From Paracoccaceae bacterium (GTDB lineage Bacteria; Pseudomonadota; Alphaproteobacteria; Rhodobacterales; Rhodobacteraceae), in the NCBI GenBank assembly GCA_028097405.1, contig JAOHEK010000001.1, forward strand, positions 1-64,000: DNA of 64,000 nucleotides, read 5' to 3'. Positions 1-53,890 of the stretch are shown here, piece by piece. The notes below the pieces were generated by a model. That model was not told the DNA's origin and did not search any database. It saw only the letters and a list, made by a program, of their open reading frames with translations. The position numbers and the translations under genes are program-made. Position 1 is the stretch's first letter. Every line of letters starts with the position of its first letter.

Positions 1-227
1 TTGGCGCTGAGCATACGCATCAGGCTTTTAGGGTCCTTGTCCATGTCTTGCGCCAAAGCCTCGAATCCCACGGTCGCGTTGACGTAGTCACGCAGTAGCA
101 CCTTGCCGGTCTCCAGATCGTCGCTGAGCATCGCCTCGATTGCTTCGCGGAATAGACCCGCCCGAAACTCAGGATCGCGCTCAGCACGCGCTTTGATCGT
201 GTCTTTGAAGTCTTTTGTCAGTGGCAT
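1..227 (-). CDS. HigA-like antitoxin, C-terminus cut by window edge
   Basis: Too incomplete for the ORF track, but the minus strand reads open from ATG at 227 to base 1. The visible protein begins MPLTKDFKDTIKARAERD and continues through a segment ending DMDKDPKSLMRMLSA, which resembles the helix-turn-helix of antidote proteins in HigBA/RelBE-type modules. Its ATG lies one base after the toxin stop codon, so the two are translationally coupled with the toxin gene first, the usual HigBA order. The presumed role is to bind and neutralise the toxin and to repress the shared promoter. The last residues of the DNA-binding domain fall outside the window. Confidence 0.7.
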   Translation of the reverse strand, partial: MPLTKDFKDTIKARAERDPEFRAGLFREAIEAMLSDDLETGKVLLRDYVNATVGFEALAQDMDKDPKSLMRMLSA

Positions 228-228
228 G

Positions 229-558
229 TCAGTCGCCTTTCTCTTTGCGGGCCTTGTAGTCGTCCCAATATGCTTTGGCCTGCTCTATGTCTTTCGACTG
301 GCGCTTTTTCGTCCCGCCACAGAGCAGGATCACAAGTGTATCGCCGTCTTGGCCAAAATAGACGCGGTAACCGGGGCCGAAAGTGATGCGCCGCTCGGAC
401 ACGCCTTGGCCTACTGGCTTCACATCGCCAAGATTCCCGGTTTCGATCCGTGCAAGCGCCGTTCGCACCTTCAATGCCGCCGCCGTATCCAGACCATTGA
501 ACCAATCCTCAAACGGCGTTTTCCCCGTTTCGGTGGCATAGACAACAAGCTTATTCAT
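229..558 (-). CDS. RelE/HigB-family toxin (addiction module killer protein)
   Basis: The ORF track starts at 588, but the internal ATG at 558 gives MNKLVVYATETGKTPFEDW, the normal N-terminus of the roughly 110-aa Gp49/HigB-type killer family. Family hallmarks include the conserved GPGYRVYFGQDGD segment and a basic C-terminal KKRQSKDIEQAKAYWDDYK helix. Such toxins are ribosome-associated mRNA endonucleases; activity here is inferred. The antitoxin follows one base downstream. Its place at the edge of an integrated element suggests a role in stabilising the element. Confidence 0.85.
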   Translation of the reverse strand: MNKLVVYATETGKTPFEDWFNGLDTAAALKVRTALARIETGNLGDVKPVGQGVSERRITFGPGYRVYFGQDGDTLVILLCGGTKKRQSKDIEQAKAYWDDYKARKEKGD

Positions 559-609
559 TGGAGTTATTGGTGACACATGCGTTACCATTTGTCAATCTAT
601 TTTGCAGCG

Positions 610-2133
610 TCAGTGCGTCATCCCCCGATCCATCTCGACCTCCCGCGCCTCTAGCTCTGTCTCAACCTCTCTTTGGCGGCTTTCACTAATTTCAAGCTGG
701 TCTCGAGTTGCGTGCGCAGCTTCCCGTAGTTCGAGCCCTCGCTCAACAAGCCGTGCAACGCAGCCACGGACGCCGTTTGCGATTGAATGAGCACCGACAC
801 GCAAGCGGCCAATCCATCCATCTGGCTCTGCATCCTGTTCGTCGAGCGCGCCTCTAACCCGCTCAATTCCTTTGCTGAGACCTCGCAGGCCGTCACCAAC
901 CGCTCGACGCACGCGAGCAAGTCGTGTTCCAAGGCTGTCAGGGGTGTCGTCATCTAATTCTCCTCGATCTTGATGCAGGTCACTGATCTGCCGCCCAGCG
1001 TGCAGGTTCTCACGCGCGTTTTCGTCGGATCCAGCACCAGCCATGTCGCGTCCTCCCTGTCGATCCGCGTCAGGCCCAGGTCCGTCAATTCCGAGCTGGT
1101 CAGCATCAGCGTCCAGAGCAAGCTCGCGGCCATCATCGAGACGGTCCCGACCAAGAACGTCCCCGTGATCAGCCAGGGCGAGATCGTCAGCCAGCTCTTG
1201 TTCTGTCGCAGAAAGGTGCGGGTATCGCTCTCGATTGTACGATGCGCGATGGTCGCAATGTGCTTCAAATCGGTCCTGAAGCTCTCCAGCTGGGATGCCA
1301 TCGAGGCGGCGTAGTCCTGCCTGATCGTGTCCAGTTCCGCGTTCAACTTCTCGCTCAGCCGGGTCGGCTTGCCAGTTTTCATGGAAAATCTCTCCTTTTA
1401 GACGCCAGCGTTCGTCCGTGTCGGGGTCGCGGGCCGTTAGGTAATCCTTGCCGACGCGAGGCAGGTCGTAGCCCGCGTCTGTGAGGGCATCGACCATGGT
1501 TGCGCGGTCGGTAATCTGGCCAATGCTGATCTGGTCTTGCAGCCATGCATGCAGCTCGTCGCGGCCTTGGGCGCGTGTTGGGGTCTCCATGGTATCGCGG
1601 ACCTCTTGCACACGCTCCAACTCCATCGGATCGGCCCAGCCGTGGCGCTGGTTCATCACGTCGCGCAAACTATCGAACGCTTTCTCATAGCCGGGCGGCG
1701 CGATGTTCAGGCTGCGGCTCGAGGTCAGCTCCAAGCGCGGCGTGCAGAAGTGAAGCTCGACACGGTCTTCGTGGGTATGTCGGACCCAAAGCATGTCATA
1801 TTGCGTCGGGTCCAGCCCCGCGAAGGCCAGATCCTCGAAGTGACCTATGACCTCGGCCTGCTGGTCCTCGGTGGGTGCATCCTCTGCGGCAAAGCTGATC
1901 ACGCCCGCACGATAGGTCCATTGGTGACGGCTGGCATCGATCAAGGCTTCGGTACGGTCTGGATTGCCGCGCAGGACTTCTGGTAGAGGCTCCCGCGTGA
2001 CGGTCATCGGCTGGCCGTCGGCATCGCGGATCAGGTCGCGGTTGTCGTCATAGGCCAGCACCTTGTCCGCAACGAGGTAGCCGACCGGGCCAGCGCCCGC
2101 GCCTTTGCCATTGCGGAAGAACTTGATCAACAT
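610..2133 (-). CDS. mobA: MobA/VirD2-like relaxase of the ColE1 (MOBP, HEN) type
   Basis: A 507-aa DNA relaxase that would nick oriT and lead strand transfer in conjugal mobilization. The N-terminal ~230 residues hold the catalytic part: a GPVGYL motif whose Tyr19 is the candidate nicking tyrosine, and a WVRHTHEDRVELHF motif with the H-E-D-R...H pattern of the ColE1/MbeA group rather than a three-histidine triad. The middle and C-terminal parts are acidic, low-complexity and helical. The start overlaps the end of mobC by 7 bp, and two further genes are nested in another frame within its 3' half, an organisation like mbeA-mbeB-mbeD of ColE1. The C-terminal sequence is probably constrained by that overlap. 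Catalytic assignment is by motif only. Confidence 0.85.
   Translation of the reverse strand: MLIKFFRNGKGAGAGPVGYLVADKVLAYDDNRDLIRDADGQPMTVTREPLPEVLRGNPDRTEALIDASRHQWTYRAGVISFAAEDAPTEDQQAEVIGHFEDLAFAGLDPTQYDMLWVRHTHEDRVELHFCTPRLELTSSRSLNIAPPGYEKAFDSLRDVMNQRHGWADPMELERVQEVRDTMETPTRAQGRDELHAWLQDQISIGQITDRATMVDALTDAGYDLPRVGKDYLTARDPDTDERWRLKGEIFHENWQADPAEREVERGTGHDQAGLRRLDGIPAGELQDRFEAHCDHRASYNRERYPHLSATEQELADDLALADHGDVLGRDRLDDGRELALDADADQLGIDGPGPDADRQGGRDMAGAGSDENARENLHAGRQISDLHQDRGELDDDTPDSLGTRLARVRRAVGDGLRGLSKGIERVRGALDEQDAEPDGWIGRLRVGAHSIANGVRGCVARLVERGLELREAAHATRDQLEISESRQREVETELEAREVEMDRGMTH
651..953 (-). CDS. MbeD/MobD-like small mobilization protein nested inside the relaxase gene
   Basis: A 100-aa ORF in a different frame entirely within the relaxase gene. 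It begins MTTPLTALEHDLLACVERLV, which resembles the start of ColE1-family MbeD/MobD proteins (TELE-x-LL-x-ALE pattern), and is predicted to be mostly helical with leucine-rich heptads. The ATG immediately follows the TAG of the upstream nested gene and both lie in the same frame, indicating coupled translation. MbeD-type proteins assist mobilization and entry exclusion in ColE1; the role here is inferred from similarity and arrangement. It could still be a chance frame, but position, order and start motif together argue for a real gene. Confidence 0.6.
   Translation of the reverse strand: MTTPLTALEHDLLACVERLVTACEVSAKELSGLEARSTNRMQSQMDGLAACVSVLIQSQTASVAALHGLLSEGSNYGKLRTQLETSLKLVKAAKERLRQS
954..1382 (-). 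CDS. MbeB-like membrane mobilization protein nested inside the relaxase gene
   Basis: A 142-aa ORF overlapping the relaxase in another frame. The N-terminus (about residues 1-60) is a helical region, LSEKLNAELDTIRQDYAAS and following, and the centre carries two closely spaced hydrophobic segments (WLTISPWLITGTFLVGTVS and MMAASLLWTLML). ColE1 MbeB has the same plan: a conserved N-terminal helical part and a membrane-associated part, encoded inside mbeA. It ends one codon before the ATG of the MbeD-like gene. Together with mobC and the relaxase this reconstructs a complete ColE1-type mob block. Function is inferred. Confidence 0.6.
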   Translation of the reverse strand: MKTGKPTRLSEKLNAELDTIRQDYAASMASQLESFRTDLKHIATIAHRTIESDTRTFLRQNKSWLTISPWLITGTFLVGTVSMMAASLLWTLMLTSSELTDLGLTRIDREDATWLVLDPTKTRVRTCTLGGRSVTCIKIEEN

Positions 2134-2600
2134 CGGCGCGCGGCCTCGATGATCTGGGCAAGCTGGCGCTCGATGGTCAGCAGGCGGCGGGCAACGGTGA
2201 GCGCATCGAGGTCAACACTGCCTGCCAGCATCGCACGGTTCAGCCATCGCGCGATCTGGTTGAGGTTGCCGCCAATGCGCCCGATTGCCAGCACCAGCGC
2301 AGGATCAACGCGGGGAATGGGCTTGCGACGGCGTGCCTCGGTCAGGCCAAGCGCCTCGCGCAGCAAGGTCGCGGCGGGCAGGCCAGCAGCCTCGGCTTTG
2401 GCGCGGAGCTGGGCCTTCTCTGCCGCTGTGCACCGAAAGACGAAAGTCTCGGCCAGCGGCTCTTTGGTGCGGGCATAGCCTGCGCCGGTGGGGTTCGAAG
2501 GGGAGGCTTGCCGCCCCTCGCAAGGTCCCGTGTCAGCAGCGCCAGCGTATGACATGGGTCGCCTTGCTGTTTGCTCTTCGGTGGGATCGGTTGTGGTCAT
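2127..2600 (-). CDS. mobC: MobC-family relaxosome accessory protein
   Basis: The ORF track begins at 2690, but the ATG at 2600 (MTTTDPTEEQ) overlaps the stop of the upstream replication-type gene as ATGA, a coupled start. The C-terminal half shows the MobC signature: DPALVLAIGRIGGNLNQIARW followed by a helical tail. MobC proteins bind oriT next to the nick site, help melt the DNA and recruit the relaxase. The central FRCTAAEKAQLRAKAEAAG segment is ribbon-helix-helix-like. It overlaps the relaxase start by 7 bp. The first ~45 residues are low-complexity. Confidence 0.8.
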   Translation of the reverse strand: MTTTDPTEEQTARRPMSYAGAADTGPCEGRQASPSNPTGAGYARTKEPLAETFVFRCTAAEKAQLRAKAEAAGLPAATLLREALGLTEARRRKPIPRVDPALVLAIGRIGGNLNQIARWLNRAMLAGSVDLDALTVARRLLTIERQLAQIIEAARRC

Positions 2601-3469
2601 GATCTGAGGCCTGCGGCTTGGACTTGCGCCGTTGTCACCAGCTTGGAGGCCAGCAATCTGTCGATCTGCTTGGCCGTGATGTGTTTGCACATCGGGCTAC
2701 GATCACCGATCCAACAGGCCAGCCGCGCATGGTGATCGGCCTGCAACGCCGCTGTCTTTTCTCGGTCCTCCGCCTGCTTCCCGACATAGGCTTGCCAACG
2801 CCGCGTCTGAAACCAGTTATCGGAAAAGCAGACCTTGGAGCGGGTGAAACCTGCACTGTCGGTGGCGTAGGCTTGGACCGCCTGCCGCAAGTCCTCCGGT
2901 CTGACCCCTTCCTTCATGGCCTCTTCGATCTGGGCAAGGCAGGCTGCTTTGCCACGCAATCGGTCGGGCGGATAGACTGCCAAAATCTTCTCAACCTCCA
3001 CCGCCTCGCGCTCGCGCGAAGGAGGTTCTTGTTTAGGTTCAATGGTAAGGTTCCTGTCCCGATTTGAGACTACCCCCGTCTCACCCTTGAGACTTTTCCC
3101 CCGCTTTTTTGAGACGTTTCCCCCCGTCTCATTCTGAGACTCAACCCCTTTGGGACCGCTGTCCCCACCCTTCGGGCGGGCGCTTGGACCAAGGACAATG
3201 TCGAGGTGCAATTCATACTGATTGGACCCGCGCCCGCCATCACCATCCCCTCGGGCATGGCGTGTGACAAGGCCGTATTCCTCCAAGGTCGTCATGTGCC
3301 GAAACAGCGTTGCACGGCCCATCTCGCACTCGTCCGCTAACCGCTGTGCGCTTGGGTTGCATTGGCCCGTTTCTTTATTGTGAAAGTCTGCCAGTTGAAT
3401 CAGCACAATCTTGGCGGCGGGCTTCACGCCTTTGACGTTCGCGGCCCAGATCAACGCCATGCCGCTCAT
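2597..3469 (-). CDS. Helix-turn-helix replication-type protein of the element
   Basis: A 290-aa protein with an N-terminal winged-helix domain (about residues 1-95; MALIWAANVKGVKPAAKIVL and RLADECEMGRATLFRHM), typical of HTH_36 plasmid and phage replication-associated proteins. A hydrophilic linker of about 50 residues rich in Lys, Gly and Ser follows, then a C-terminal helical domain. The DNA of the linker carries repeated TGAGAC/GTCTCA motifs, suggesting an origin inside the gene. ATGA overlap with mobC places both in one transcript. It may initiate replication of the excised circular form or regulate the mob genes; the sequence does not decide between these. Confidence 0.65.
   Translation of the reverse strand: MSGMALIWAANVKGVKPAAKIVLIQLADFHNKETGQCNPSAQRLADECEMGRATLFRHMTTLEEYGLVTRHARGDGDGGRGSNQYELHLDIVLGPSARPKGGDSGPKGVESQNETGGNVSKKRGKSLKGETGVVSNRDRNLTIEPKQEPPSREREAVEVEKILAVYPPDRLRGKAACLAQIEEAMKEGVRPEDLRQAVQAYATDSAGFTRSKVCFSDNWFQTRRWQAYVGKQAEDREKTAALQADHHARLACWIGDRSPMCKHITAKQIDRLLASKLVTTAQVQAAGLRS
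3065..3140. repeat. Iteron-like TGAGAC/GTCTCA cluster inside the replication-type gene
   Basis: Four TGAGAC copies start at 3065, 3088, 3110 and 3135 (spacing 23, 22 and 25 bp), interleaved with two inverted GTCTCA copies at 3078 and 3126, embedded in C-runs. Spacing near two helical turns on one DNA face is iteron-like. They encode the linker of the HTH protein, the position where lambda-type initiators keep their origin. Alternatively the repeats may simply reflect repeated linker codons. Confidence 0.5.
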
Positions 3470-3508
3470 ACTGGTGATCCTAAGAAAGCAGGTAACTGTG
3501 TTGGGGCG

Positions 3509-3560
3509 TTTGAAACATTCCCGTTAAGTTCACGGTTTGTCAGGGGACATTTTGAAACAT
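3509..3560. promoter_or_regulatory. Direct repeat TTTGAAACAT x2 upstream of the replication-type gene
   Basis: The only non-coding space of the visible element (3470-3588) holds two perfect 10-bp copies of TTTGAAACAT at 3509-3518 and 3551-3560, 42 bp apart, with a small CCGT...ACGG inverted repeat between. This interval must contain the promoter of the minus-strand rep-mobC-mobA block and may contain operator sites or part of oriT/attP. No clear -35/-10 pair could be fixed. Confidence 0.4.
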
Positions 3561-3588
3561 AAGCCCATAGATTTATTTGATAAAATGG

Positions 3589-3637
3589 ACGGATTGCAAA
3601 TCCGTGTACACGAGTTCGATTCTCGTACTCGCCTCCA
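3589..3637 (+). other. Attachment site: 3' half of tRNA-Cys(GCA)
   Basis: The 49 nt from the anticodon arm to CCA match a tRNA-Cys: anticodon stem ACGGA/TCCGT around loop TTGCAAA (anticodon GCA), T arm ACGAG-TTCGATT-CTCGT, acceptor 3' strand ACTCGCC, then TCCA. The bases before 3589 are AT-rich and cannot form a D arm or 5' acceptor strand, so this is not a functional gene. It is best read as the core repeat left at the right border of an element that integrated into tRNA-Cys. Confidence 0.85.
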
Positions 3638-3652
3638 TTTAAAATCAATGAC

Positions 3653-4222
3653 TTAGATGAATTTCAAGAAATGCCCTAGGGCGCTTCTAAACATTCTGGT
3701 TTTGTTCTGTTCTGATGTGCGGGTGGTTTGGTCCGAGCAGTCGACCAGCGGTGTAAGAACACCGATCCAGAGGGCAACAGCCAGCAAATGCAACGTCAAT
3801 GCGATGTCGAGCAGTGTAGTGTCACGGCCAGAGACATGTCCGACGTGATCAAAGGACCAGATCGCAATGACCTCACCTAATACCGAGATCCAAATTCCAA
3901 CGCGGCCTATGAACAGGCCAGCGATCAACAGACCAAGACCCACCAAACGTAACAGCAAAGCAGTGCCTACAGGTGTGGTCCAAAGCAGGCCAAGCATCTC
4001 AAGATCGGTCATGCCGCTGACATCGCCCGTCAGATTGGCACCGCGCAATGAAAAGGCGAGGATCGTTGCCATCACCCCCAAAACGGCGAATGCCACGGCC
4101 AAACCACGAGTGCGATCCAGCCGAAACATCAACGTGGCGATGACTGTGCCAGCCGCAGTCATCACACCAAGATAGAGCGCAAACTTTGTGATGATGGCCG
4201 CCAGCCCGAACGCATCAGGCAT
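3653..4222 (-). CDS. copD: CopD-family copper resistance membrane protein, C-terminally shortened
   Basis: 189 aa with about five hydrophobic segments and the CopD-domain pattern around FDHVGHVSGRD and LTLHLLAVALWIGVLTPL. CopD proteins act with periplasmic CopC in copper handling at the inner membrane. Family members are usually near 290 aa; this one loses similarity after LTPL and ends in a hydrophilic tail whose stop is 16 bp from the tRNA-Cys attachment repeat. The shortening may therefore reflect an old rearrangement at the integration border. Its ATG overlaps the TAA of the copC remnant (TAATG), a trace of original coupling. It may no longer be functional. Confidence 0.65.
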   Translation of the reverse strand: MPDAFGLAAIITKFALYLGVMTAAGTVIATLMFRLDRTRGLAVAFAVLGVMATILAFSLRGANLTGDVSGMTDLEMLGLLWTTPVGTALLLRLVGLGLLIAGLFIGRVGIWISVLGEVIAIWSFDHVGHVSGRDTTLLDIALTLHLLAVALWIGVLTPLVDCSDQTTRTSEQNKTRMFRSALGHFLKFI

Positions 4223-4325
4223 TATTCAACAGTGAAACTGAAGGTGCCGTTCAGCGCGTGACCATCAGAGCCTAGTCCGCGCCACCTGCAACCAGTAAGG
4301 CGGCAACCGCCATTATTGATCTCAT
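4221..4325 (-). pseudogene. copC: copC remnant with internal deletion
   Basis: Between the glutaredoxin-MauE gene and copD the minus strand reads MRSIMAVAALLVAGGAD and stop, a signal-peptide start, then in another frame SDGHALNGTFSFTVE and stop, which looks like the usual C-terminus of CopC (DGH-x-x-x-G-x-x-F-x-V). The body of the protein (a family member is about 120 aa) is missing and the joint is out of frame. The final TAA overlaps the copD ATG, as expected for a former copCD operon. Identification rests on two short segments plus context. Confidence 0.55.
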
Positions 4326-4398
4326 TGCAGGCTCCGCCCCTTAGGTCTTTTCAGTGTTGCTAAGGCTTCTTGTTGATGGAGGGTCAAATGCTTTGTCA

Positions 4399-5148
4399 TC
4401 ACAGCTTCGACAGCATCCAGATGGCCATCCCGACCATCATCAGATTCTCGGTCAATGATACGAACCCCAACGGAACCTTGCTGTCTCCACCGACGCAGGC
4501 GCATTTGAGTTCACGTTTGTCGATGTAAACCGCCTTCAACACGCTGATCGCGCCGATGCTGGCCACAAACAACGCTGCTGGTGCCGACAACCACGTGAGA
4601 ACACCCACCATCATAAGCAGACCTGCCCCAGTCTCAACAAACGGATAGACATATCCGTAGCGAACCCACCGTTGGGCCAGCAGGTCGTAGTTCAGGAACA
4701 TCGTCGCAAATCGTTCAACGTCTTGCAGTTTTTGCAGACCCAACAGCACCATGGATATCGAGATGAACCATTCCAATGTCCGTCCCGTGAATACGGCACC
4801 TAACGCCAACCAAGTAACAGCGATGGCCATCATCAAAGCGACCGAGAACAAAGCGATGACAGGTTTATAGGTCGTGGTATCTTTAGACTTGGTGGCTTTC
4901 CCTAGATGTGCGCTCAGGTCATCGAAACCACCGATGCGTTCTTTGCCAATGAACGTCTGTGGCGTCGTCTTCACATCATGTTTGGCTTTGAAGGCATCAA
5001 CCTCTTCGCGGTTGGTAAGGTGACGGTCTTTCACATGAAAGCCCTGACGTTCCAGCAGGTCTTTGGACTTCAGCCCGTACGGACACATATGATCGGTCAT
5101 CACCATGCGATAGAGAGTGGCAGTTTTGGCAGCGGTATCCTTGGGCAT
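4399..5148 (-). CDS. Glutaredoxin-MauE/DoxX-like membrane fusion protein
   Basis: 249 aa in two parts. Residues 10-85 form a glutaredoxin-like domain with active-site motif CPYG at 22-25 and the cis-proline region TTPQTFIGKERIGGFDDL. Residues 95-249 carry four to five membrane spans typical of MauE-like proteins, with a late CACVGGDSKVPLG motif whose cysteines could act as a membrane redox or metal site. It is transcribed divergently from a CueR-type regulator through a MerR-type promoter, so a copper-linked thiol redox role is likely. The exact substrate is unknown. Such fusions are seen beside copper genes in marine bacteria; this placement is recalled, not searched. Confidence 0.75.
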   Translation of the reverse strand: MPKDTAAKTATLYRMVMTDHMCPYGLKSKDLLERQGFHVKDRHLTNREEVDAFKAKHDVKTTPQTFIGKERIGGFDDLSAHLGKATKSKDTTTYKPVIALFSVALMMAIAVTWLALGAVFTGRTLEWFISISMVLLGLQKLQDVERFATMFLNYDLLAQRWVRYGYVYPFVETGAGLLMMVGVLTWLSAPAALFVASIGAISVLKAVYIDKRELKCACVGGDSKVPLGFVSLTENLMMVGMAIWMLSKL

Positions 5149-5215
5149 GGTGTCTCAATCCTTTTGCGGGTGTGTTCCTCAGGAGAACGACCAACCTTGA
5201 AGTTTCTACATCACC

Positions 5216-5246
5216 AACCTAATCTCTCCAGTAACTGGAAGGTCAA
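5216..5246 (-). promoter_or_regulatory. CueR-type promoter/operator for the glutaredoxin-MauE gene
   Basis: On the minus strand: -35 TTGACC (5241-5246), a 19-bp spacer holding the imperfect dyad ACCTTCCAG-TTA-CTGGAGAGAT, then -10 TAGGTT (5216-5221). The over-long 19-bp spacer centred on a dyad is the hallmark of promoters activated by MerR-family regulators, and ACCTTCC matches CueR sites. It points at the gene starting at 5148, about 70 bp away. Confidence 0.75.
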
Positions 5247-5257
5247 GGGCGCGTTTC

Positions 5258-5641
5258 ATGAATATTTCTGCTGCTGCGAAAGCTTCGGGTCTGCCCGTCA
5301 AAACTGTGCGCTACTATGCTGACATCGGCTTGGTGGACGCACCTTCGCGATCAGAGGCAGGATACCGTAGCTACGATGACGTAGCAGTTCGTAAACTGGT
5401 ATTTGCCCGAAGGTCACGTGCGTTCGGCTTCAGCATAGAAGAATGTCGGGAGCTTCTGGGGCTGTATCAAGATCAGGACCGCACAAGCTCTGAGGTCAAA
5501 CGCATTGCGTCAAAGCGTCTTGAGGAGATCGAAGTCAAACAACGTGAACTTCAATCCCTGCACGATGCGTTGGCGCATCTTGTGACATCTTGCCGTGGAG
5601 ACCACAGGCCTGACTGTCCAATCATCGACTACCTAGGGTGA
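5258..5641 (+). CDS. cueR: CueR-type MerR-family Cu(I)-responsive regulator
   Basis: 127 aa. An N-terminal winged helix (MNISAAAKASGLPVKTVRYYADIGLV) is followed by the dimerisation helix and a metal-binding loop with Cys112 and Cys120 (CRGDHRPDC), the same positions as E. coli CueR, and Ser77, the residue that distinguishes the monovalent-metal sensors. It should sense Cu(I)/Ag(I) and untwist the divergent 19-bp-spacer promoter at 5216-5246. The length is normal. It appears intact although its presumed copCD targets are decayed. Confidence 0.9.
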   Translation: MNISAAAKASGLPVKTVRYYADIGLVDAPSRSEAGYRSYDDVAVRKLVFARRSRAFGFSIEECRELLGLYQDQDRTSSEVKRIASKRLEEIEVKQRELQSLHDALAHLVTSCRGDHRPDCPIIDYLG

Positions 5642-5749
5642 GCGGGCTTTGCAGCGACGCGGAAGCGAAACAGCCATTAACCTTTCCGGTTCTTTGCGTC
5701 ATGATCTGTCACGCACGGGCGCCATGCCCCCATCTTGGAAGGATGTCCC

Positions 5750-6643
5750 ATGACCAAACCCAGCATCGGCTTTATCGGCGTCGGCCTTATGGGTCACGGT
5801 ATGGCCAAGAATATCGTCGAAGCAGGCTATCCCTTGGCGGTCACCGCCTTTCGCAAACGCGAAGCTGTGGACGATCTGGTGGGCCGTGGTGCCGCTGAGA
5901 AAGCTGATGTGAAGTCCGTCGCAGAAACCTCAGATATCATTTTCCTATGTGTGACCGGATCAATCGAAGTCGAAGCCTTGATGCGTGGACCCGACGGGAT
6001 CATTGCCGCGCTTAAGCCGGGGGCCATTGTCGTTGATTGTTCTACCTCTGATCCGGTTTCGACGCTTACACTGGCGGCCGAGGTTGAAGCCGCAGGCGGT
6101 CGCTTTGCCGATGCGCCGCTTGGGCGAACCCCGAAGGAAGCGTGGGACGGCACGCTTGACGCGATGGTTGGGGCATCTGATGAGGTATTTCAGATCATCA
6201 AACCCGTCATTGACACATGGGCGGGTGTGGTGGTGCATTTGGGCGACGTGGGGCTGGGTCATAAGATGAAATTGGTCAACAATTTCATCGCCATGGGCTA
6301 TGGCGCGCTTTATTCTGAGGCTTTGGCGATTGCGCGCAAATCCGGCCTATCTACGGAACAATTCGACAGCGTCATCCGCCCCGGTCGGCTGTCTAACGGG
6401 TTTTACGAGACCTTCATGAAATGGTCTTTGGAGGGCGACGAAAACGCCCATAAATTCGCTATCAGCAATGCCCACAAAGATATGGCCTACCTTGCAAATC
6501 TGGCGACATCTGTTGGCGCTGTGAACCCCATGCAGGCCGTTGTGAAGAACGCCTATGCCGCCATGGATGCGGCTGGCGAAGGTGATCGCTTTGTGCCGAT
6601 GTTGGCCGATTTTATCGCCCGTACGAATGGCTTGAAGGATTAA
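5750..6643 (+). CDS. NAD(P)-dependent beta-hydroxyacid dehydrogenase (3-hydroxyisobutyrate dehydrogenase family)
   Basis: The start at 5750 (MTKPSIGFIGVGLMGHGMA) is preferred over 5735 because AAGGA lies just upstream of it. The N-terminal Rossmann fold has GVGLMG; the C-terminal helical domain has the catalytic-lysine segment GHKMKLVNNFIAMG. The substrate loop reads DAPLGRTPKEAWDGTL rather than the common DAPVSGG, so the substrate differs from 3-hydroxyisobutyrate; sulfolactaldehyde, tartronate semialdehyde and similar small hydroxyacids are possible. 297 aa is family-typical. It sits upstream of the ABC transporter genes in the same direction, but the 118-bp gap means co-transcription is uncertain. 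Confidence 0.8.
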   Translation: MTKPSIGFIGVGLMGHGMAKNIVEAGYPLAVTAFRKREAVDDLVGRGAAEKADVKSVAETSDIIFLCVTGSIEVEALMRGPDGIIAALKPGAIVVDCSTSDPVSTLTLAAEVEAAGGRFADAPLGRTPKEAWDGTLDAMVGASDEVFQIIKPVIDTWAGVVVHLGDVGLGHKMKLVNNFIAMGYGALYSEALAIARKSGLSTEQFDSVIRPGRLSNGFYETFMKWSLEGDENAHKFAISNAHKDMAYLANLATSVGAVNPMQAVVKNAYAAMDAAGEGDRFVPMLADFIARTNGLKD

Positions 6644-6761
6644 ACAGCCCTTAAACCCCAAGCCCTGACCGCAGAAACGCTTGATTTCCCAGCTTTTCCC
6701 GGTCAGCTTGCGGGACTTAAGACAAGCCATACGAAACGCTTGCCACAATGGGGAGATACAC

Positions 6762-7478
6762 ATGAGAACGCTAATCATCACATTAGCCACCACAGTTGCG
6801 ATGGCCGGGTCGGCCATGGCCCAAGACGTCGTCCGTTTGGGAACCGAGGGCGCCTACCCTCCGTGGAACTTCATCAATGACGCCGGTGCCGTCGATGGCT
6901 TCGAGCGCGAGTTGGGCGACGAGCTGTGCAAGCGCGCATCATTGAACTGCGAATGGGTCACGAACGAATGGGATTCGATCATCCCAAACCTTGTGTCCGG
7001 CAACTATGACGTCATCATCGCAGGCATGTCGATCACAGACGAACGCGACGAAGTGATCGACTTCACTGCAGCCTATACGCCACCTGATCCATCGACCTTT
7101 GCTGCCGTGTCAGATGATGTAGATCTGACAAGCGGCGTCATCGCGGCTCAGACCGGTACCATTCAGGCAGGCTATGTGGCTGAAACCGGTGCAACACTGG
7201 TCGAATTCGCAACCCCAGACGAAACAATTGCCGCTGTTATGAACGGTGAAGCCGATGCGGTTTTGGCCGATGACAGCTTTATCAAGACGGCTCTTGAGGC
7301 GAATGGTGATCTGCAGGTTGTTGGCGATCCTGTTGCTTTGGGCGGTGGTGTTGGCATGGGCATCCGCGAAAGCGATACTGAATTGCGCACCAAGTTTGAC
7401 GCGGCCATTGACGCCATGAAGGCCGACGGCAGCCTCAACACGATGATCGAAAAGTGGGAAGTCAGCTCGAAGTGGTAA
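6762..7478 (+). CDS. Periplasmic amino acid-binding protein of a polar amino acid ABC transporter
   Basis: The real start is ATG 6762, preceded by GGGAG and opening a clear signal peptide MRTLIITLATTVAMAGSAMA cleaved before QDVV; the track start at 6681 would bury it. The mature protein is a family 3 solute-binding protein: LGTEGAYPPWNFINDAG, a WDSIIPNLVSGNYDVIIAGM lobe and a DAVLADDSF segment. The overall pattern is closest to the lysine/arginine/ornithine/histidine-binding group, suggesting a cationic or polar amino acid, but the ligand cannot be read from sequence. A GC-rich hairpin follows the stop codon and the two permease genes come next. Confidence 0.9.
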   Translation: MRTLIITLATTVAMAGSAMAQDVVRLGTEGAYPPWNFINDAGAVDGFERELGDELCKRASLNCEWVTNEWDSIIPNLVSGNYDVIIAGMSITDERDEVIDFTAAYTPPDPSTFAAVSDDVDLTSGVIAAQTGTIQAGYVAETGATLVEFATPDETIAAVMNGEADAVLADDSFIKTALEANGDLQVVGDPVALGGGVGMGIRESDTELRTKFDAAIDAMKADGSLNTMIEKWEVSSKW

Positions 7479-7500
7479 GTGCTGATCTTTGACGCCAATC

Positions 7501-7522
7501 GGGGTCGGGTTCGCCCGGCCCC
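7501..7522 (+). promoter_or_regulatory. Stable intra-operon mRNA hairpin after the binding-protein gene
   Basis: GGGGTCGGG-TTCG-CCCGGCCCC forms a 9-bp stem with one G-U pair and a UUCG tetraloop, with no U-run after it. Such hairpins between a binding-protein gene and permease genes commonly protect the upstream mRNA from 3' decay and allow more binding protein than permease to be made. Confidence 0.65.
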
Positions 7523-7585
7523 AACACGACGACCCAAAAAACGACGGGATTACACGTTGGACCACTCTTGCGTTGATGCCACCTG

Positions 7586-8467
7586 ATGTTTGCCTATTGC
7601 GCTGATCCAAGCACCCTTCAAGGCTTTGCATGGCTCACCTGCTATTTGACCAATGGCAAACATTTGATCGCCTATACGTCGATCGGAACCGTGCTGCTGT
7701 TGTTGGCCATCACGGCCCCCACAGCACTGGCCTTTGGCTTTGGCGGAGCCATTGCGGCGCGCAGTCGGGTTGCCCCAGTCAGATGGTTCGGGCAAGGCTA
7801 TACCGCGATTGTGCGCGGGGTTCCCGACATCGTCTTCTTCTTATTCTTCGTCATCGCTTTGGATCAGGCGCTGGAATGGTTGCGCCACAAGGCCCTTTGT
7901 CCGGACTGGGACGAACCCATCCGGCAGGGTAGCGATTTTGTGGTCTGCACGGCGGCCAAACTGCCGCTTTCAGCCTCGCCTCAATGGGTGCACGAGGTGT
8001 ACGGTTTTCTTCTGGCGGTCCTGACCTTCGCTATCGTCTTCGGGGCCTTCGCGGCCAATGTGCTTTATGGGGCCATGCGCGCGGTTCCAACTGCCCAGAT
8101 CGAAACCGCCGAAGCTTATGGCATGACCGAGCGTCAAAGCATCTGGCGCATTCTGGTGCCGCAGATGTGGGTCTATGCCCTGCCCGGCCTGTCGAACCTT
8201 TGGATGATCCTTGTCAAAGCAACGCCCTTGCTGTTCCTTTTGGGCGTCGAAGACATCGTCTATTGGGCCCGCGAATTGGGCGGCACAAAGGGCGTTATAT
8301 TTGAGTATCCGCATCCAGATTGGCGGCTGTACTACTTCCTTGCGCTGCTGGTCTTCTATTTGTCCCTGACCCAATTTTCCGAAGTCGTTCTGCGTCGTCT
8401 GTCAGTAAAGCTAAGTCGAGGCCAAGCCACCTTTGCCGGTGAGCGCCAACGAAAAGCGACCACGTGA
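7586..8467 (+). CDS. ABC transporter permease, polar amino acid type (first)
   Basis: 293 aa, longer than the usual ~230 aa HisQ/HisM type because of an insert between early membrane spans (CPDWDEPIRQGSDFVVCTAAK) that should form a periplasmic loop with two cysteines. About five membrane spans are visible, and the EAA loop (AQIETAEAYGMTERQSIWRILVPQ) that docks the ATPase is intact. It ends with a 4-bp overlap on the second permease gene. No ATP-binding subunit gene is found in the operon. Confidence 0.85.
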   Translation: MFAYCADPSTLQGFAWLTCYLTNGKHLIAYTSIGTVLLLLAITAPTALAFGFGGAIAARSRVAPVRWFGQGYTAIVRGVPDIVFFLFFVIALDQALEWLRHKALCPDWDEPIRQGSDFVVCTAAKLPLSASPQWVHEVYGFLLAVLTFAIVFGAFAANVLYGAMRAVPTAQIETAEAYGMTERQSIWRILVPQMWVYALPGLSNLWMILVKATPLLFLLGVEDIVYWARELGGTKGVIFEYPHPDWRLYYFLALLVFYLSLTQFSEVVLRRLSVKLSRGQATFAGERQRKATT

Positions 8468-9291
8468 TGGAGTGCTTTGACACCATTGCCGCTTATGCGT
8501 TCCGATCCATCGGCTATGGAGAACGCCTACTGCCGCGCTCGGATTTCACACTTTGTCAGCAGATCACGCTTATCGGATCAGGCATGCTTTGGAACATCTA
8601 CTTTGGCGCGCTTGCATTAATGGCTGGGTTCTTTTTGGCCACGGCACTTGCTTTGGGAAAGGCCGCAAAAACGCCCCTGATCCGCAAACCCTCTGAATGG
8701 TTCATCTTTCTGTTCCGAGGCTCGCCCTTGTTCATCCAGTTTTTCCTCGCTTACGAAGCTTTCGTCCTTTTGCCGAAAGAAGGGATCGAGATCTTTGGCA
8801 TCACCGCTGACACCCGTTGGCTGACCAAAGCTTGGGCCGGCGCTTTGGTGGTTTTGTTCCTCAACACCTCGGCCTATGCCGCCGAAATCTTTTACGGAGC
8901 GCTCAGGTCCGTGCCAAAGGGCGATCTGGAAGCGGCAGATGCATACGGGATTTCTGGCTGGTCGCGTTTTCGCCGGATCGTCTGGCCCACAATGATGCGC
9001 CTTGGCTGGCCCGGCTATACGAACGAAGCAATCTTCCTGTTCCACGCGACAACGCTGGTGTTTTTCTCAAGCTTCCCGGCATGGCAACAACGGGGCGACG
9101 CGCTTTATTATGCCAAATACTTTGCCGACAAAACGTTTAACCCCTTTGTGCCTTACCCCATCGTCGCGGCCTATTTCATCTTGCTGACGCTGATCGTGAT
9201 CTGGGTTTTCGGTCTGATCAACCGGCACCTGAACCGTCATTTGCCGGGCCGCGCAAAACCGATCCGCTATCGCCCGCAGATGATCCGCTAG
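8464..9291 (+). CDS. ABC transporter permease, polar amino acid type (second)
   Basis: 275 aa, overlapping the first permease by 4 bp (ATGA). Membrane spans, the FRGSPLFIQFFL segment conserved in polar amino acid permeases, and the EAA loop GDLEAADAYGISGWSRFRRIVWP are all present. It also carries a pre-TM N-terminal extension of about 35 residues. It pairs with the gene at 7586 to make the transmembrane channel. The stop TAG is directly followed by the ATG of the DUF1636 gene, so that small gene is almost certainly co-translated. Confidence 0.85.
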   Translation: MMECFDTIAAYAFRSIGYGERLLPRSDFTLCQQITLIGSGMLWNIYFGALALMAGFFLATALALGKAAKTPLIRKPSEWFIFLFRGSPLFIQFFLAYEAFVLLPKEGIEIFGITADTRWLTKAWAGALVVLFLNTSAYAAEIFYGALRSVPKGDLEAADAYGISGWSRFRRIVWPTMMRLGWPGYTNEAIFLFHATTLVFFSSFPAWQQRGDALYYAKYFADKTFNPFVPYPIVAAYFILLTLIVIWVFGLINRHLNRHLPGRAKPIRYRPQMIR

Positions 9292-9627
9292 ATGGCGTTG
9301 GCCTTGCAAATCTGTGTGGCCTGTCTCGGCCCCGGTCGTCTCGGCGAAGTGGCGGCGATAGAACGGGCACTGGCCAGCAGCGACATCTCGGGTGATGCAG
9401 ACCTTCACCGCATCGCTTGCGGCGAAACCTGTAAATCCCCGGCGCGCCTTTGGCTGCAAAGCGATGGCGGGGCGAGCTATATTTTCGAAGGCGTCGATCT
9501 TGATGCCGACCGGGACGACATCATGGCGACTCTGCGCTGCTATCTGGCCAGCCCTAAGGGTTGGATCGAAGACGCGCGCCCCTGCGGTCGTTTGCGATTT
9601 TGCCTAACGGCCCGCGTGCCCGCTTAG
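9292..9627 (+). CDS. DUF1636 small cysteine-containing protein
   Basis: 111 aa. The pattern matches the DUF1636 family: an N-terminal cysteine motif CVACLGPGRLGEV, a second motif IACGETCKSPARLWL, a YIFEGVD strand and the C-terminal SPKGWIEDARPCGRL-LTARVP. The family is annotated as predicted metal-binding; no activity is established to my knowledge. The ATG abuts the permease stop with no spacer. The placement between a transporter and a formylglycine-generating enzyme homologue suggests a role in metal or cofactor supply, which is speculation. Confidence 0.7.
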   Translation: MALALQICVACLGPGRLGEVAAIERALASSDISGDADLHRIACGETCKSPARLWLQSDGGASYIFEGVDLDADRDDIMATLRCYLASPKGWIEDARPCGRLRFCLTARVPA

Positions 9628-9699
9628 GCACGGGTTTTTCCTGTGGCAGACGACGGTACCTTGAGGCAAACTTGGGATTAGGACGAAGGGGGCAAAACC

Positions 9700-10650
9700 A
9701 TGGACGGACAGGCCTGTTGTACGCCCGCTGCTGCGCGCGCGCGCGGTTTTGCACCCGAACTTGCCAACACAGGCACAGGGCCGACGTCCCTGCCCCCCCT
9801 TGTCGATGTTGCGGGCGGCCACGCCTTAGTTGGCACCAATCACCCCGAACTGCGCGATGATCGCGAAAGCCCGCTGAAGACAAAGCGCATCCGTGCCTTC
9901 CGGATGATGGAAACCACCGTCACCAATGCCATGTTCGCCGAATTCGTCGATGACACGGGCTATCAAACCGAAGCCGAGCGCTTTGGCTGGTCCTTCGTCT
10001 TTCATCACAACGTCTCGGGCAAGATTGCTGCCTCCGAAGGCGTGCAAGGTGTCGAATGGTGGCGCAAGATTGATGGCTCATTCTGGCGGATGATCAACGG
10101 GCCGGGTTCGGACAACGATTGGCAGGCCGAACACCCGGTCGTGCATGTCTCGTGGAACGACGCACGCGCCTTTGCGGCATGGGCGGGCGGGCGTCTGCCA
10201 ACCGAAGCGGAATGGGAACATGCCGCGCGCGGCGGTCTGGGCGATGTTCCGTTCCCATGGGGTGACCGCGATCCCGACGACACGGATTTTCAGCCCTGCA
10301 ACATCTGGCAAGGACGGTTTCCGGACCTGAACACTGGCGCTGACGGCCACATAGCGACAGCCCCCGCACGGTCATTCATGCCGAACGGCTTTGGCCTTTT
10401 CAACATGGTCGGAAATGTTTGGGAATGGACGGGCGAGCCTTTCAAGCTACGCTCGGTCTCAAAGCGGTTGAAAGGCCACGCTGGCAATCTGCCGAATTCG
10501 AAACTGCTGAAGGGCGGATCTTTCCTTTGCCACAAAAGCTATTGTTTTCGCTATCGCATCGCGGCGCGCACCGGCAATACCGCAGACACCTCAACCGCGC
10601 ATCAGGGCTTCCGATTGGTTTTCGATGAAAGCGTTTCAGGCAAGAATTAA
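9700..10650 (+). CDS. Formylglycine-generating enzyme (SUMF1/FGE) homologue
   Basis: 316 aa, RBS-like AAGGGGGC upstream. The SUMF1 fold runs from about residue 35 (VDVAGGHALVGT) to the end (QGFRLVFDE). The catalytic copper-binding cysteine pair is present as LCHKSYC, Cys277 and Cys282, closely matching the active site of human SUMF1, so this is a genuine FGE rather than an inactive EgtB/SUMF-like relative. FGE converts a cysteine in the CxPxR motif of type I sulfatases to formylglycine. No sulfatase lies in the window. The N-terminus reads MDGQACCTPAAARARG, a cysteine-proline motif resembling its own substrate. It follows the DUF1636 gene by 72 bp. Confidence 0.88.
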   Translation: MDGQACCTPAAARARGFAPELANTGTGPTSLPPLVDVAGGHALVGTNHPELRDDRESPLKTKRIRAFRMMETTVTNAMFAEFVDDTGYQTEAERFGWSFVFHHNVSGKIAASEGVQGVEWWRKIDGSFWRMINGPGSDNDWQAEHPVVHVSWNDARAFAAWAGGRLPTEAEWEHAARGGLGDVPFPWGDRDPDDTDFQPCNIWQGRFPDLNTGADGHIATAPARSFMPNGFGLFNMVGNVWEWTGEPFKLRSVSKRLKGHAGNLPNSKLLKGGSFLCHKSYCFRYRIAARTGNTADTSTAHQGFRLVFDESVSGKN

Positions 10651-10700
10651 ACCTTCATAAAGCGGCTATCCAACGGAACCGAAACTGTTTAAATGACCCA

Positions 10701-10844
10701 ATGAGACGTTTTCTGATTTGGTCGATGATCCCGGTTACGCTGTTGATTGGAGCGCTGGAAAGCTGGTTCGGTGGGTTGGGAATTTTTCTTGGCTTCGTCC
10801 TTTATGCCTTGGCATTCATATTGTGGATCAGATTTTTGGACTAA
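10701..10844 (+). CDS. Small two-span membrane protein, 47 aa
   Basis: Below the ORF-track cutoff. MRRFLIWSMIPVTLLIGAL then FGGLGIFLGFVLYALAFILWIRF gives two hydrophobic stretches around a short ESW loop, with positive charge at the N-terminus. No strong ribosome binding site is seen and the ORF is short, so it could be spurious, but the amphipathic pattern and its stop 8 bp from the converging secreted ORF make it plausible. No family recognised. Confidence 0.4.
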   Translation: MRRFLIWSMIPVTLLIGALESWFGGLGIFLGFVLYALAFILWIRFLD

Positions 10845-10852
10845 GCCCGTCT

Positions 10853-11014
10853 TCAGTGTTTAAGCGTTCCGTTCAGTGGTGCTGGACCGTCTATGCGTGT
10901 CTCAACACTGGATTTGATCGGATCTTTGCCGTGTGGTTGGGCCATGACAGGCAGGCTAACAGCAATTGTGGTTACACCGGCAAGATATGCGGCAAGGGTG
11001 ATTTTCTTTTTCAT
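10853..11014 (-). CDS. Small secreted protein, 53 aa
   Basis: Below the ORF-track cutoff. The minus strand carries GGGAG 8 bases upstream of ATG 11014, then a classic Sec signal peptide MKKKITLAAYLAGVTTIAVS ending PVMA before QPHGKD. The mature part is only about 28 residues, hydrophilic and without cysteine. RBS, signal peptide and compact intergenic fit argue for a real gene. No function recognised. Confidence 0.6.
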   Translation of the reverse strand: MKKKITLAAYLAGVTTIAVSLPVMAQPHGKDPIKSSVETRIDGPAPLNGTLKH

Positions 11015-11128
11015 CTAAATGCTCCCTAGATCTGATCTCCAACTTACATATGTAAACGAAATTTACATTTAAAGGGGTGCTTCTATCTTTTTCGTCGAAC
11101 CGCTAAGACGGGGCAGCAAGGGGGTCCC

Positions 11129-11908
11129 ATGAAAATCGCGACATTCAATATCAACGGTATTAAGGCACGGTTCGAAGCCCTGACCGACTGGCTTCAAAAC
11201 TCGGCCCCCGATGTGGCGCTGCTACAAGAGATCAAATCTGTCGACGAAAACTTCCCGCGCGAACATTTCGAAGATTTGGGCTATATCGTTGAAACCCATG
11301 GGCAAAAAAGCTTCAACGGCGTCGCGATCATGTCAAAACTTCCGCTGGAAGACGTCACACGCGGTCTTCCGGGCGACGATGCCGACGAACAAGCACGCTG
11401 GATCGAGGCGACCGTGATGGGTGAAAAGCCAGTACGGGTCTGCGGGTTGTACCTACCGAATGGCAACCCCGTGCCGGGGCCGAAGTACGACTATAAGCTG
11501 GCTTGGATGAAACGCCTGAAAACCCGTGCCGAAGCGCTTCTGGCCGCCGAAGAACCCGCCCTGATGGCAGGCGATTATAACATCATCCCGCAAGACGAAG
11601 ACGCCGCGCGCCCCGACGCTTGGCGAACAGACGCACTGGCCCGCCCCGAAAGCCGCGCCGCCTACCGCGAAATCCTGAACCTTGGGTTTACCGAAGCGTT
11701 CCGCGCCCGCCACCAAGGCGCCGGCCATTATTCATTCTGGGATTATCAGCGCGGTGCTTATGATCGAAATGACGGCATCCGCATCGATCATCATCTTTTA
11801 ACCCCACAAGCTGCTGACTTACTGACAGATTGCTGGATCGAAGCCGATGTTCGGGGCCGCGAAAAACCCTCGGACCACACGCCGGTCTGGATCGAACTAG
11901 ACGCATAA
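11129..11908 (+). CDS. xthA: Exodeoxyribonuclease III
   Basis: 259 aa, strong RBS (AAGGGGG). An apurinic/apyrimidinic endonuclease and 3'-5' exonuclease of base-excision repair. Family motifs are in order: MKIATFNINGIKAR (metal Asn), LLQEIKS (Glu), the AGDYNIIPQDEDAARP active-site stretch, FWDYQRGAYDRNDGIRIDHHL and the C-terminal SDHTPVWIEL with the catalytic histidine. Full length and normal. The XthA branch (rather than ExoA) is supported by the RNDGIRIDHHLL segment. Confidence 0.95.
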   Translation: MKIATFNINGIKARFEALTDWLQNSAPDVALLQEIKSVDENFPREHFEDLGYIVETHGQKSFNGVAIMSKLPLEDVTRGLPGDDADEQARWIEATVMGEKPVRVCGLYLPNGNPVPGPKYDYKLAWMKRLKTRAEALLAAEEPALMAGDYNIIPQDEDAARPDAWRTDALARPESRAAYREILNLGFTEAFRARHQGAGHYSFWDYQRGAYDRNDGIRIDHHLLTPQAADLLTDCWIEADVRGREKPSDHTPVWIELDA

Positions 11909-11974
11909 ACGAGCTATCGCATAAAAGTGGCCCGCCGAAAACGAGCCATTTTCTTTTTGCGAAAAGCTATTTGT

Positions 11975-13301
11975 TTACTTGAACAGAAGCCTGTCTTCGA
12001 GCGATTGCAAGCTGTCCATGTAGAAGCTTACAGCGTCATATGCCGAGATATCCATCGCTTGAGCATAGGTGCTTCAGTCCAAGACACCTTCGTTCGTGTT
12101 CTCTTGCAAATTGGCGATCAAAGCTGGGCCTGCCTTGGTTCTTTTCAGACCATTTGCAACCATGTCCGAGCGGAAACCATTGTCGAAAGCATCCCAGCTT
12201 GCCGAACGATGAGCCAGTTTTTCGCCGGAAATTTCTAAGATCGCTGCCTTGTCTTCTTCCGAGACCTGCGCCCATGCTTCGTTGGACAGAATAACCGAAT
12301 ATGTTGGCGTATAAAGGCCGTAGTCGACTTCGGTTACCGCAATATTGTCGTTCCAAATTCCCAAGGCGCGCGCGGCACCGTGGGCTAGAAAGAACGTCGC
12401 AGGTGCGTCATGCGTTGCATCATAGTTCGACACGAAGTCAACAGCCTCGGTACGCAAAACAGCGGGACCGAATACGTCAAGACGTTTGAAGTATGGGACG
12501 GGTTACACGTTCTTGTCGACGACGTTCTCGGTTGCGATGATCGGAACATCGACATCACGCCAAATGTAGGCGGCGGTGCTGCAATGAAGCCAGGAAGTTG
12601 AGCTTTGTCGAAGTCGCCCGTTTCAGCTAGAAACTCATCGTGCAAGCGCCACAGGGATACGGCGGTCTGTTCAGCCGAACCGCCCATCAATGGTAGTGAA
12701 GGAAGTTGCAGTAAAGGATGCGATGCGCTCAGATGTGAATTTAGGACATAAGCGGCATCAACCTCGCCTGACGTCACAAGCGAGTATTGCTCTTCTTGAT
12801 CGCGGCTTATGACGTCGGGATCAACGAAAGAGACACGTCGCTCGGTCACTTCGGTGATTTCAGCCCGATAAAGATCGATGATCCCACTCCACTGTTGATG
12901 ATAAACGGCGGAGCAGATGTCTTGTTGAATGTGAAGACAAGAGGACCTTCTGGACCCGTGGCGTCAACTTGTGGCCCCGTATCGGCTTCGGCGGCATCTT
13001 CAAGTTCAAGCGTGGTCGCACTTTCGATAGCGGCCTCTGGTCCCGCATCGTTTAGGACGGGCAACACTGGTTTATCTTCCAGTGCAAGCACCATCCAATT
13101 GCTGTCTGCTTTGGCAGGGGTGGCCAAAGAACCATCCGCGTTTAAGCAGGAGATCTGCAGCACTTGGCCGACAGATATCCGGTTCGGATTGTCGCCAATC
13201 TCGGCTTGGTTGAATTTGTGAAGCGGCTTAAAATCGACGGTGCCATAGACCCGCGAGCTAATTTTGCTCAGCGAGTCAACACTTACGATTGTGTATGTCA
13301 T
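11975..13301 (-). pseudogene. Broken gene for a LysM-TRAP (DctP-like) binding protein fusion
   Basis: The minus strand from MTYTIVSVDSLSKISSRVYG (13301) encodes a LysM domain (to about residue 55), a Glu/Ala-rich linker, then a DctP-type TRAP solute-binding domain beginning LVFTFNKTSAPPF. The frame is lost near 12885 and resumes as AEITEVTERRVSFVDPDV; it is lost again near 12565 and resumes as WRDVDVPIIATENVVDKNV, where an in-frame TAA is followed by PYFKRLDVFGPAVL. A TGA after EGVLD interrupts the last helix, which reads on to the TAA at 11975. That makes two frameshifts and two nonsense codons. LysM replacing a signal peptide on a TRAP protein is unusual. The fragments at 12385-12849 and 12074-12457 in the ORF track are pieces of it. 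Confidence 0.75.
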
Positions 13302-13616
13302 TACGTCACTTGACCATGTGATCAAGACGTTACGTCACTTCCAGTTCTCGTCAGGTAATTTGACGAAAGTATGTTAATAGTTTTAAACAACTTAGACATG
13401 TATTTTTCGTAGATTGTTCGCCTAAGGTCAAACACCATTTCCACGAACATCCCGATAAAATGATACTTCGACAAAATTTGACCCAAGTGGAATCGCCCTG
13501 AAATCGACACCTGATGAACTGGCGGATTTGGTCTTTCTCAAGATCACAAAATCAATTGATCAAAAAACACCGCCAACATTCACCTCTGCTTAGTCCGTAG
13601 CTTCTAATACAAGGCC

Positions 13617-14354: not shown

Positions 14355-14366
14355 GCCCGTTTGCGA

Positions 14367-17228: not shown

Positions 17229-17294
17229 GGCACCCTTTCGACGACGCGAACCAGAGAGATAGCGGACACACCGCGGAACTCAATGGCGTTAACG

Positions 17295-17309
17295 GAACAT
17301 TACAGGAAC
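17295..17309 (-). promoter_or_regulatory. Alphaproteobacterial SOS (LexA) box upstream of uvrA
   Basis: Minus strand GTTCCTGTAATGTTC fits the direct-repeat consensus GTTC-N7-GTTC of alphaproteobacterial LexA exactly, 67 bp before the uvrA ATG. uvrA is a classical SOS gene. Confidence 0.85.
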
Positions 17310-17414
17310 ATCAGAGGAAGGTCACGCAGAAATCCGCGACTTTCTTGTGGATAAGTTAGGCAGGTGCGCTGAAACTTGAAAGGTCTCTGCTGGGATCTCG
17401 TGTCAAGACAACGG

Positions 17415-17434
17415 GCCCCCGGAAAACTGGGGGC
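17415..17434 (-). terminator. Hairpin downstream of lpd
   Basis: GCCCCC-8 nt-GGGGGC stem-loop seven bases after the lpd stop. No strong U-run follows on the minus strand, so it may be a weak terminator or 3' mRNA protector. Confidence 0.45.
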
Positions 17435-17440
17435 ACTTTC

Positions 17441-53814: not shown

Positions 53815-53890
<76 letters not shown>

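What the first reader, a model, noticed from the sequence alone, without database searches (positions are those of the whole stretch)
1..3637. A mobilizable element ends in a duplicated half tRNA-Cys
A 49-nt tRNA-Cys 3' half with intact anticodon and T arms but no D arm sits exactly at the switch from mob/rep genes to chromosomal genes. This gives the right border at base resolution and predicts an intact tRNA-Cys, carrying the same 49 bp, at the left border.
Basis: partly seen in the sequence, partly recalled or inferred. Interest (0 to 1): 0.65.

Follow-up and report, generated by a model that had tools for sequence, protein, structure and literature searches.

The report
Chimeric tRNA-Cys junction between mobile elements
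The broken half of a cysteine tRNA gene is real and marks the end of a mobilizable DNA element, but instead of touching ordinary chromosome it touches the remains of a second, different element that had used the same tRNA gene earlier, which is a known kind of pile-up.

Summary
The half tRNA-Cys (3589-3637, +) is real and unique in this 62.6%-complete MAG. The contig starts at window base 1 and the MAG holds no intact tRNA-Cys, so the left border cannot be tested here. Relatives test it: in G228 a complete element with a related mob module lies between an intact tRNA-Cys with adjacent integrase and a half tRNA whose 47 nt equal the window's; in G400 the rep-mobC-mob-toxin block (89-91% aa identity) ends in the same kind of half.

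The right side is not simply chromosome. At 3686-3712 lies a 27-bp sequence (26/27) that in 17 of 21 family genomes carrying it sits 48-61 bp 3' of a tRNA-Cys or half tRNA, usually beside one integrase group. It is conserved whether coding or not: an attP-arm signature. The left flank carries arm repeats of another integrase group (TTTGAAACA; 74% to G376). So 3589-3637 is a chimeric junction: a mobilizable element integrated at a tRNA-Cys already occupied by another element, since decayed (integrase gone, copper genes with two deletions). Genus-conserved DNA resumes at 5735. Crossover is in the anticodon loop (3594-3600). Known kind (IME accretion), well-resolved new member.

The parts
3..227 (-). 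ORF cut by the contig start, next to the toxin gene; probable antitoxin partner (left element)
   Evidence: no family match; homologue follows the toxin in G400 L092:6038-6367; function inferred from position
229..588 (-). RelE/ParE-type toxin (TIGR02683), left element
   Evidence: 90.6% identical in G400 and 92% in G376 next to the same mob genes
610..2133 (-). relaxase (MbeA-like), left element
   Evidence: relatives in 56 of 397 family genomes
2127..2690 (-). MobC/NikA relaxosome protein, left element
   Evidence: PF21983, PF05713
2597..3469 (-). HTH_36 replication-initiator-like protein, left element
   Evidence: 88.6% identical in G400; replication role not tested
3505..3559 (+). left att arm (P'-type): two TTTGAAACA repeats (3509-3520, 3550-3559), type B
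   Evidence: 3511-3590 is 74% identical to G376, 45-46% to G400 and G369
3589..3637 (+). half tRNA-Cys, chimeric att site; crossover within the anticodon loop 3594-3600; 3601-3637 is the displaced tRNA 3' half
3645..3656 (+). TCAATGACTTAG, recurrent just 3' of many intact and half tRNA-Cys copies
3686..3712 (+). 27-bp att arm (P-type) of a type-C integrase element, 26/27; right (older) element
   Evidence: G369 aligns with the window up to 3712 exactly
3653..4222 (-). ORF made of CopD truncated at its C-terminus (homology 3746-4222) fused to the att-arm sequence
4223..4330 (-). remnants of copC and of a cytochrome c gene joined at 4270-4284 by a deletion of about 690 bp
   Evidence: alignment with G212 and G360; gene names in G212 read by eye
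4399..5148 (-). glutaredoxin-MauE membrane protein of the copper cluster
5258..5641 (+). CueR, Cu(I)-responsive regulator
   Evidence: TIGR02044 above its cut-off
5735..10626 (+). DNA colinear with same-genus genome G001 (C8:38325-43424): start of genus-conserved chromosome

Best explanation
The half tRNA-Cys is a chimeric attachment site inside a tandem array of site-specifically integrated elements at the tRNA-Cys gene. (1) An element with a type-C tyrosine integrase integrated in tRNA-Cys, leaving a restored tRNA followed by its 27-bp-type arm. (2) A second, mobilizable element (type-B arms; rep, mobC, relaxase, toxin) recombined with that restored gene inside the anticodon loop, supplying a new 3' half to the tRNA on its left and pushing the old 3' half to its right end. 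(3) The older element decayed by deletion, losing its integrase and leaving its arm next to a truncated copper cluster. Shown by sequence: the half, the two arm types, the backbone homology, the copper deletions, and the recombination footprint in relatives. Inferred: the order of events, that the copper genes were cargo of the older element, and that an intact tRNA-Cys and a type-B integrase lie to the left in this organism.
For: Half tRNA unique and far above chance. Complete elements of the same plan in G228 and G400. In G228 the displaced half equals the window's 47 nt and differs from the intact copy at 4 positions. 27-bp arm in 21 of 397 genomes, 17 of them 48-61 bp 3' of a tRNA-Cys or half, 0 in the reversed control, conserved irrespective of reading frame. 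Left arm 74% to G376 type B but 45-46% to G400 and G369, while the adjacent gene is 90% to G400. G369 has the same order, mob module, half tRNA, 27-bp arm, integrase, aligning to 3712. Deletions in the copper cluster. The scheme is described for IMEs accreted beside decayed elements (PMC5704250).
Against: No intact tRNA-Cys, left end or integrase of the left element is visible. The older element has neither an integrase nor a right end in the window, so its extent is unknown. The B and C arm words are related (both contain AAACATTC), and 3 of 22 reference elements (G283, G335#2, G257) do not show clearly matching arms.
Confidence: 0.85

Rival explanations
1. Simple element/chromosome border: one mobilizable element integrated in tRNA-Cys, with ordinary chromosome from 3638 on.
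For: The half tRNA and mob/rep genes are there; genus-conserved chromosome does follow, 2.1 kb further on.
Against: The integrase-side arm of another element stands 48 bp right of the half. The copper cluster is absent from G001 at DNA level and carries two deletions.
Confidence: 0.07
2. The half tRNA is the attP of one element that carries mob/rep on one side and the copper genes on the other, present as an unintegrated or otherwise inserted copy.
For: attP also has a half tRNA between the two ends of one element; no second copy is found in the MAG.
Against: The arms on the two sides belong to different integrase groups, whereas elements with both ends in hand mostly repeat one arm type at both ends.
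Confidence: 0.04
3. Assembly chimera: two contigs of the metagenome joined through the repeated tRNA-Cys/att sequence.
For: MAG in 118 contigs, contig edge 3.6 kb away, and the joining sequence (tRNA 3' half plus TCAATGACTTAG) is repeated in many genomes of the family.
Against: The same order occurs in an independent genome, G369, and similar chimeric junctions lie inside large contigs of G014, G376, G400 and G335.
Confidence: 0.04

Closest known systems
IME accretion beside a decayed element (CIME) with a chimeric att site, e.g. IME_Sag2603_tRNAlys (review PMC5704250)
   Same: A mobilizable element integrated next to a decayed element at one tRNA 3' end, with a chimeric att site between them and distantly related integrases of the same specificity.
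   Different: Different phylum, tRNA-Cys instead of tRNA-Lys, crossover in the anticodon loop; the left border is not seen here.
Islander tRNA islands, anticodon subsite A, tandem arrays (PMC4383910)
   Same: Displaced 3' tRNA fragment in the same orientation; crossover in the anticodon loop (2083 of 3919 Islander islands); tandem arrays are known (125).
   Different: Islander requires an integrase and a fragment for each array member; the right member here has lost its integrase.
G400 second tRNA-Cys element (L092:2645-17553)
   Same: rep-mobC-mob-toxin block with 89-91% aa identity, ending in a half tRNA-Cys; second in a three-copy array.
   Different: Type-A arms (GGTATCA) and a different integrase group; the window's att end matches G376 instead.
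G369 junction (L117:1-8893)
   Same: mob module, half tRNA-Cys, 27-bp type-C arm in the same order.
   Different: Its left arm is type A (GGTATCA) and its type-C integrase is still partly present at the contig edge.

Membership tests
tRNA-gene genomic island (Islander definition) | displaced tRNA fragment of at least the 3' part, in the orientation of the intact gene | tested here: inconclusive
   Fragment met; orientation relative to the intact gene not testable because the contig ends; met in G228 and G400
tRNA-gene genomic island (Islander definition) | intact tRNA gene at the other border | not testable with these tools
   Contig starts at window base 1; none in the 62.6%-complete MAG; present in relatives
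tRNA-gene genomic island (Islander definition) | tyrosine integrase inside the island | not testable with these tools
   Off the contig; PF00589 integrases in the relatives' elements
tRNA-gene genomic island (Islander definition) | crossover in a known tRNA subsite | tested here: met
   Identity among half copies begins at the anticodon loop TTGCAAA
integrative and mobilizable element (IME) | relaxase/relaxosome genes without a complete conjugation apparatus | tested here: inconclusive
   Relaxase and MobC present; only the last 3.6 kb of the element is visible
tandem accretion of an IME with a decayed element | chimeric att site with different arm types on its two sides | tested here: met
   Type B left, type C right
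tandem accretion of an IME with a decayed element | decayed neighbour that lost its integrase but kept an att end | tested here: met
   27-bp arm at 3686-3712 with no integrase beside it, copper cluster with deletions; its far att end was not found
tandem array in the strict Islander sense | each island has its own integrase and tRNA fragment | tested here: not met
   The right element has no integrase next to its arm and no second fragment in the window

The most novel reading that the evidence does not exclude
tRNA-Cys in this family is a shared landing site for at least four integrase groups (arm words GGTATCA, TTTGAAACA, TCTAAACA, GTTTACA), and a common rep-mobC-mob backbone has changed its att end by module exchange: the window's backbone is G400-like up to the start of its rep gene (90%) but its att arm is G376-like (74% against 45%). 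In one group the attP arm is a 27-bp sequence that overlaps the end of the integrase gene and stays conserved even where the reading frame is lost.
Probability: 0.5. Interest if true: 0.42.

Novelty: new member of a known kind. Interest (0 to 1): 0.32.

Why it matters
It turns a contig-edge curiosity into a resolved history: which element arrived last, which decayed, and what must lie off the contig. It also shows that a half tRNA alone does not mark the element/chromosome border, and that the displaced half can differ in sequence from the intact gene, which matters for tools that delimit islands by tRNA repeats. The arm signatures let an integrase group be recognised even when the integrase is gone.

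Tried and rejected
Reading the 27-bp homology as a conserved integrase protein tail was rejected: the frame differs between loci, or the integrase ends 25-600 bp before it. Locating the left contig through pcm, which flanks tRNA-Cys in relatives: pcm is absent from the MAG. Locating the ancestral right junction through G001 synteny: the genes upstream of the colinear block in G001 lie inside another MAG contig (C42), so that order is not shared. A second, degenerate tRNA-Cys copy in the window: none at up to 14 mismatches over 44 nt. A tRNA intron was rejected because the break is at the anticodon stem with unrelated element DNA before it. The Rfam tmRNA match (16.8 bits against a cut-off of 47) is a sub-threshold overlap with the tRNA-like end. 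One Pfam call failed because the G228 integrase stretch contains a stop as delimited. Literature searches for a described tRNA-Cys hotspot in Rhodobacteraceae/Rhodobacterales found no paper, weak evidence because the library is partial.

Full report
What was claimed. A 49-nt tRNA-Cys 3' half at 3589-3637 was said to mark, at base resolution, the border between a mobilizable element and the chromosome, and to predict an intact tRNA-Cys with the same 49 bp to the left.

The observation. The half tRNA is there. It has the anticodon arm ACGGA-TTGCAAA-TCCGT and the T arm ACGAG/CTCGT, followed by the 3' acceptor strand and CCA; no 5' half precedes it, ARAGORN calls no gene there, and the tRNA covariance model scores 30.1 bits over part of its length. 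It is unique in the MAG. The MAG is 62.6% complete and the window is contig C1 from its first base, so the left border is out of reach. No intact tRNA-Cys was found in the MAG.

The left side. Reading leftward from the half: an HTH_36 protein, a MobC/NikA protein, a relaxase, a RelE/ParE-type toxin and an ORF cut by the contig start. The relaxase has relatives in 56 of 397 family genomes; near other copies of the module lie tRNA-Arg, -Pro, -Lys, -Phe or -Cys genes. In G228 a complete element runs from an intact tRNA-Cys with an adjacent integrase through cargo, mob, mobC and rep to a half tRNA-Cys. In G400 three tRNA-Cys copies lie on one strand of the chromosome, and the element between the two half copies has rep, mobC, mob and toxin 89-91% identical to the window's, a type I restriction system and a PF00589 integrase.

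Where recombination happened. The half copies of the family agree from the anticodon loop TTGCAAA onward, while the bases just before it vary (GGA, GTC, CTT and others). This places strand exchange in the loop, 3594-3600 in the window, the anticodon subsite of Islander (PMC4383910). In G228 the intact tRNA and the half differ at four T-stem positions, and that half is identical to the window's over 47 nt. So the incoming element brings a new 3' half and displaces the old one; the two copies need not match.

The right side. A search with the right flank gave short matches near tRNA-Cys copies in other genomes. They resolve to TCTAAACATTCTGTTTTTGTTCTGTTC (26/27 at window 3686-3712), found in 21 of 397 family genomes (the window's own included) and never for the reversed control. 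In 17 of the 21 it lies 48-61 bp 3' of an intact or half tRNA-Cys; the other four are at contig edges or beside degraded copies. An integrase of one group usually follows. In several loci the integrase stop codon lies inside the sequence; in others the integrase ends 25-600 bp before it or is not detected. The constraint is therefore on DNA, as expected of an attP arm; binding by the integrase is inferred, not shown.

Two arm types meet. For elements with both ends in hand, arm words usually recur at both ends: TCTAAACA (G149, G196, G276, G242), TTGAAACA (G376#1, G123#1), GTTTACA (G014, G335#1, G100, G076), GGTATCA (G400#2, G230, G182). Three elements (G283, G335#2, G257) do not fit well and may be hybrids themselves. 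The window's left flank has two TTTGAAACA repeats and aligns at 74% with the G376 arm but only 45% with G400, although the neighbouring gene is 90% identical to G400. The right flank is of the TCTAAACA group. G369 has the same order, mob module, half tRNA, 27-bp arm, with the integrase still partly present, and aligns with the window up to 3712 exactly. The half tRNA is thus a chimeric junction of two elements, as described for IMEs accreted beside decayed elements (PMC5704250).

Decay of the older element. Right of 3712 the integrase is missing. A copper cluster follows: copD truncated at 3746, a deletion of about 690 bp at 4270-4284, then the MauE/glutaredoxin gene and cueR, by comparison with intact clusters in G212 and G360. 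In G399 a homologous cluster lies inside a tRNA-Cys element, about 6 kb from the intact tRNA, so such cargo is plausible. The same-genus genome G001 has no DNA match to 3713-5641 and is colinear from 5735. That the copper genes belonged to the type-C element is inference; no far end of that element was found.

How common. With a 44-nt core, 315 of 397 family genomes have a match; by my own count of the table, 67 of them hold two or more copies. Not every second copy was checked to be a half.

Verdict. Known kind of system, new member, resolved at sequence level. Interest 0.32.

Noticed in passing
window 3746-5641: Copper cluster with two deletions: CopD truncated into the att arm, and copC/cytochrome c remnants fused at 4270-4284; intact versions lie in G212 (L155) and G360 (L156).
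   Followed up: partly
L055 (G001:C32) 5035-10435: A 5.3-kb tRNA-Cys interval in the same genus, bounded by an intact and a half copy, with a 1008-aa protein that looks caspase/WD40-like (by eye) but no recognised tyrosine integrase; a protein that looks like a large serine recombinase lies beyond the half at 68-1354.
   Followed up: no
L056 (G001:C15) 7009-9443: Two different integrase-like genes face each other across a half tRNA-Cys in the same-genus genome; the far end of that contig carries a piece of a mob gene 91-95% identical to the window's.
   Followed up: partly
L112 (G376:C2) 4889-19495: Three successive tRNA-Cys copies (one intact, two halves) with three different integrase genes and arm types: a triple array.
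   Followed up: partly
L154 (G399:C2:578000-597999): A tRNA-Cys element of about 51 kb carries a copper cluster near its integrase and, by eye, a VirB4/TrbE-like ATPase, so it may be self-transmissible.
   Followed up: no
window 49833-49874 and at least ten other MAG contigs: A sequence of about 40 bp that lies upstream of the conserved dehydrogenase gene in G001 (L057:8185-8231) recurs on many contigs of the MAG; a dispersed repeat of unknown nature.
   Followed up: no
window 53815-55466: Two tRNA-Val(TAC) genes 1.5 kb apart in opposite orientation.
   Followed up: no
L092-L111: The rep-mobC-mob module occurs near different tRNA genes (Arg, Pro, Lys, Phe, Cys) in different genera, suggesting exchange of its integration module.
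   Followed up: partly
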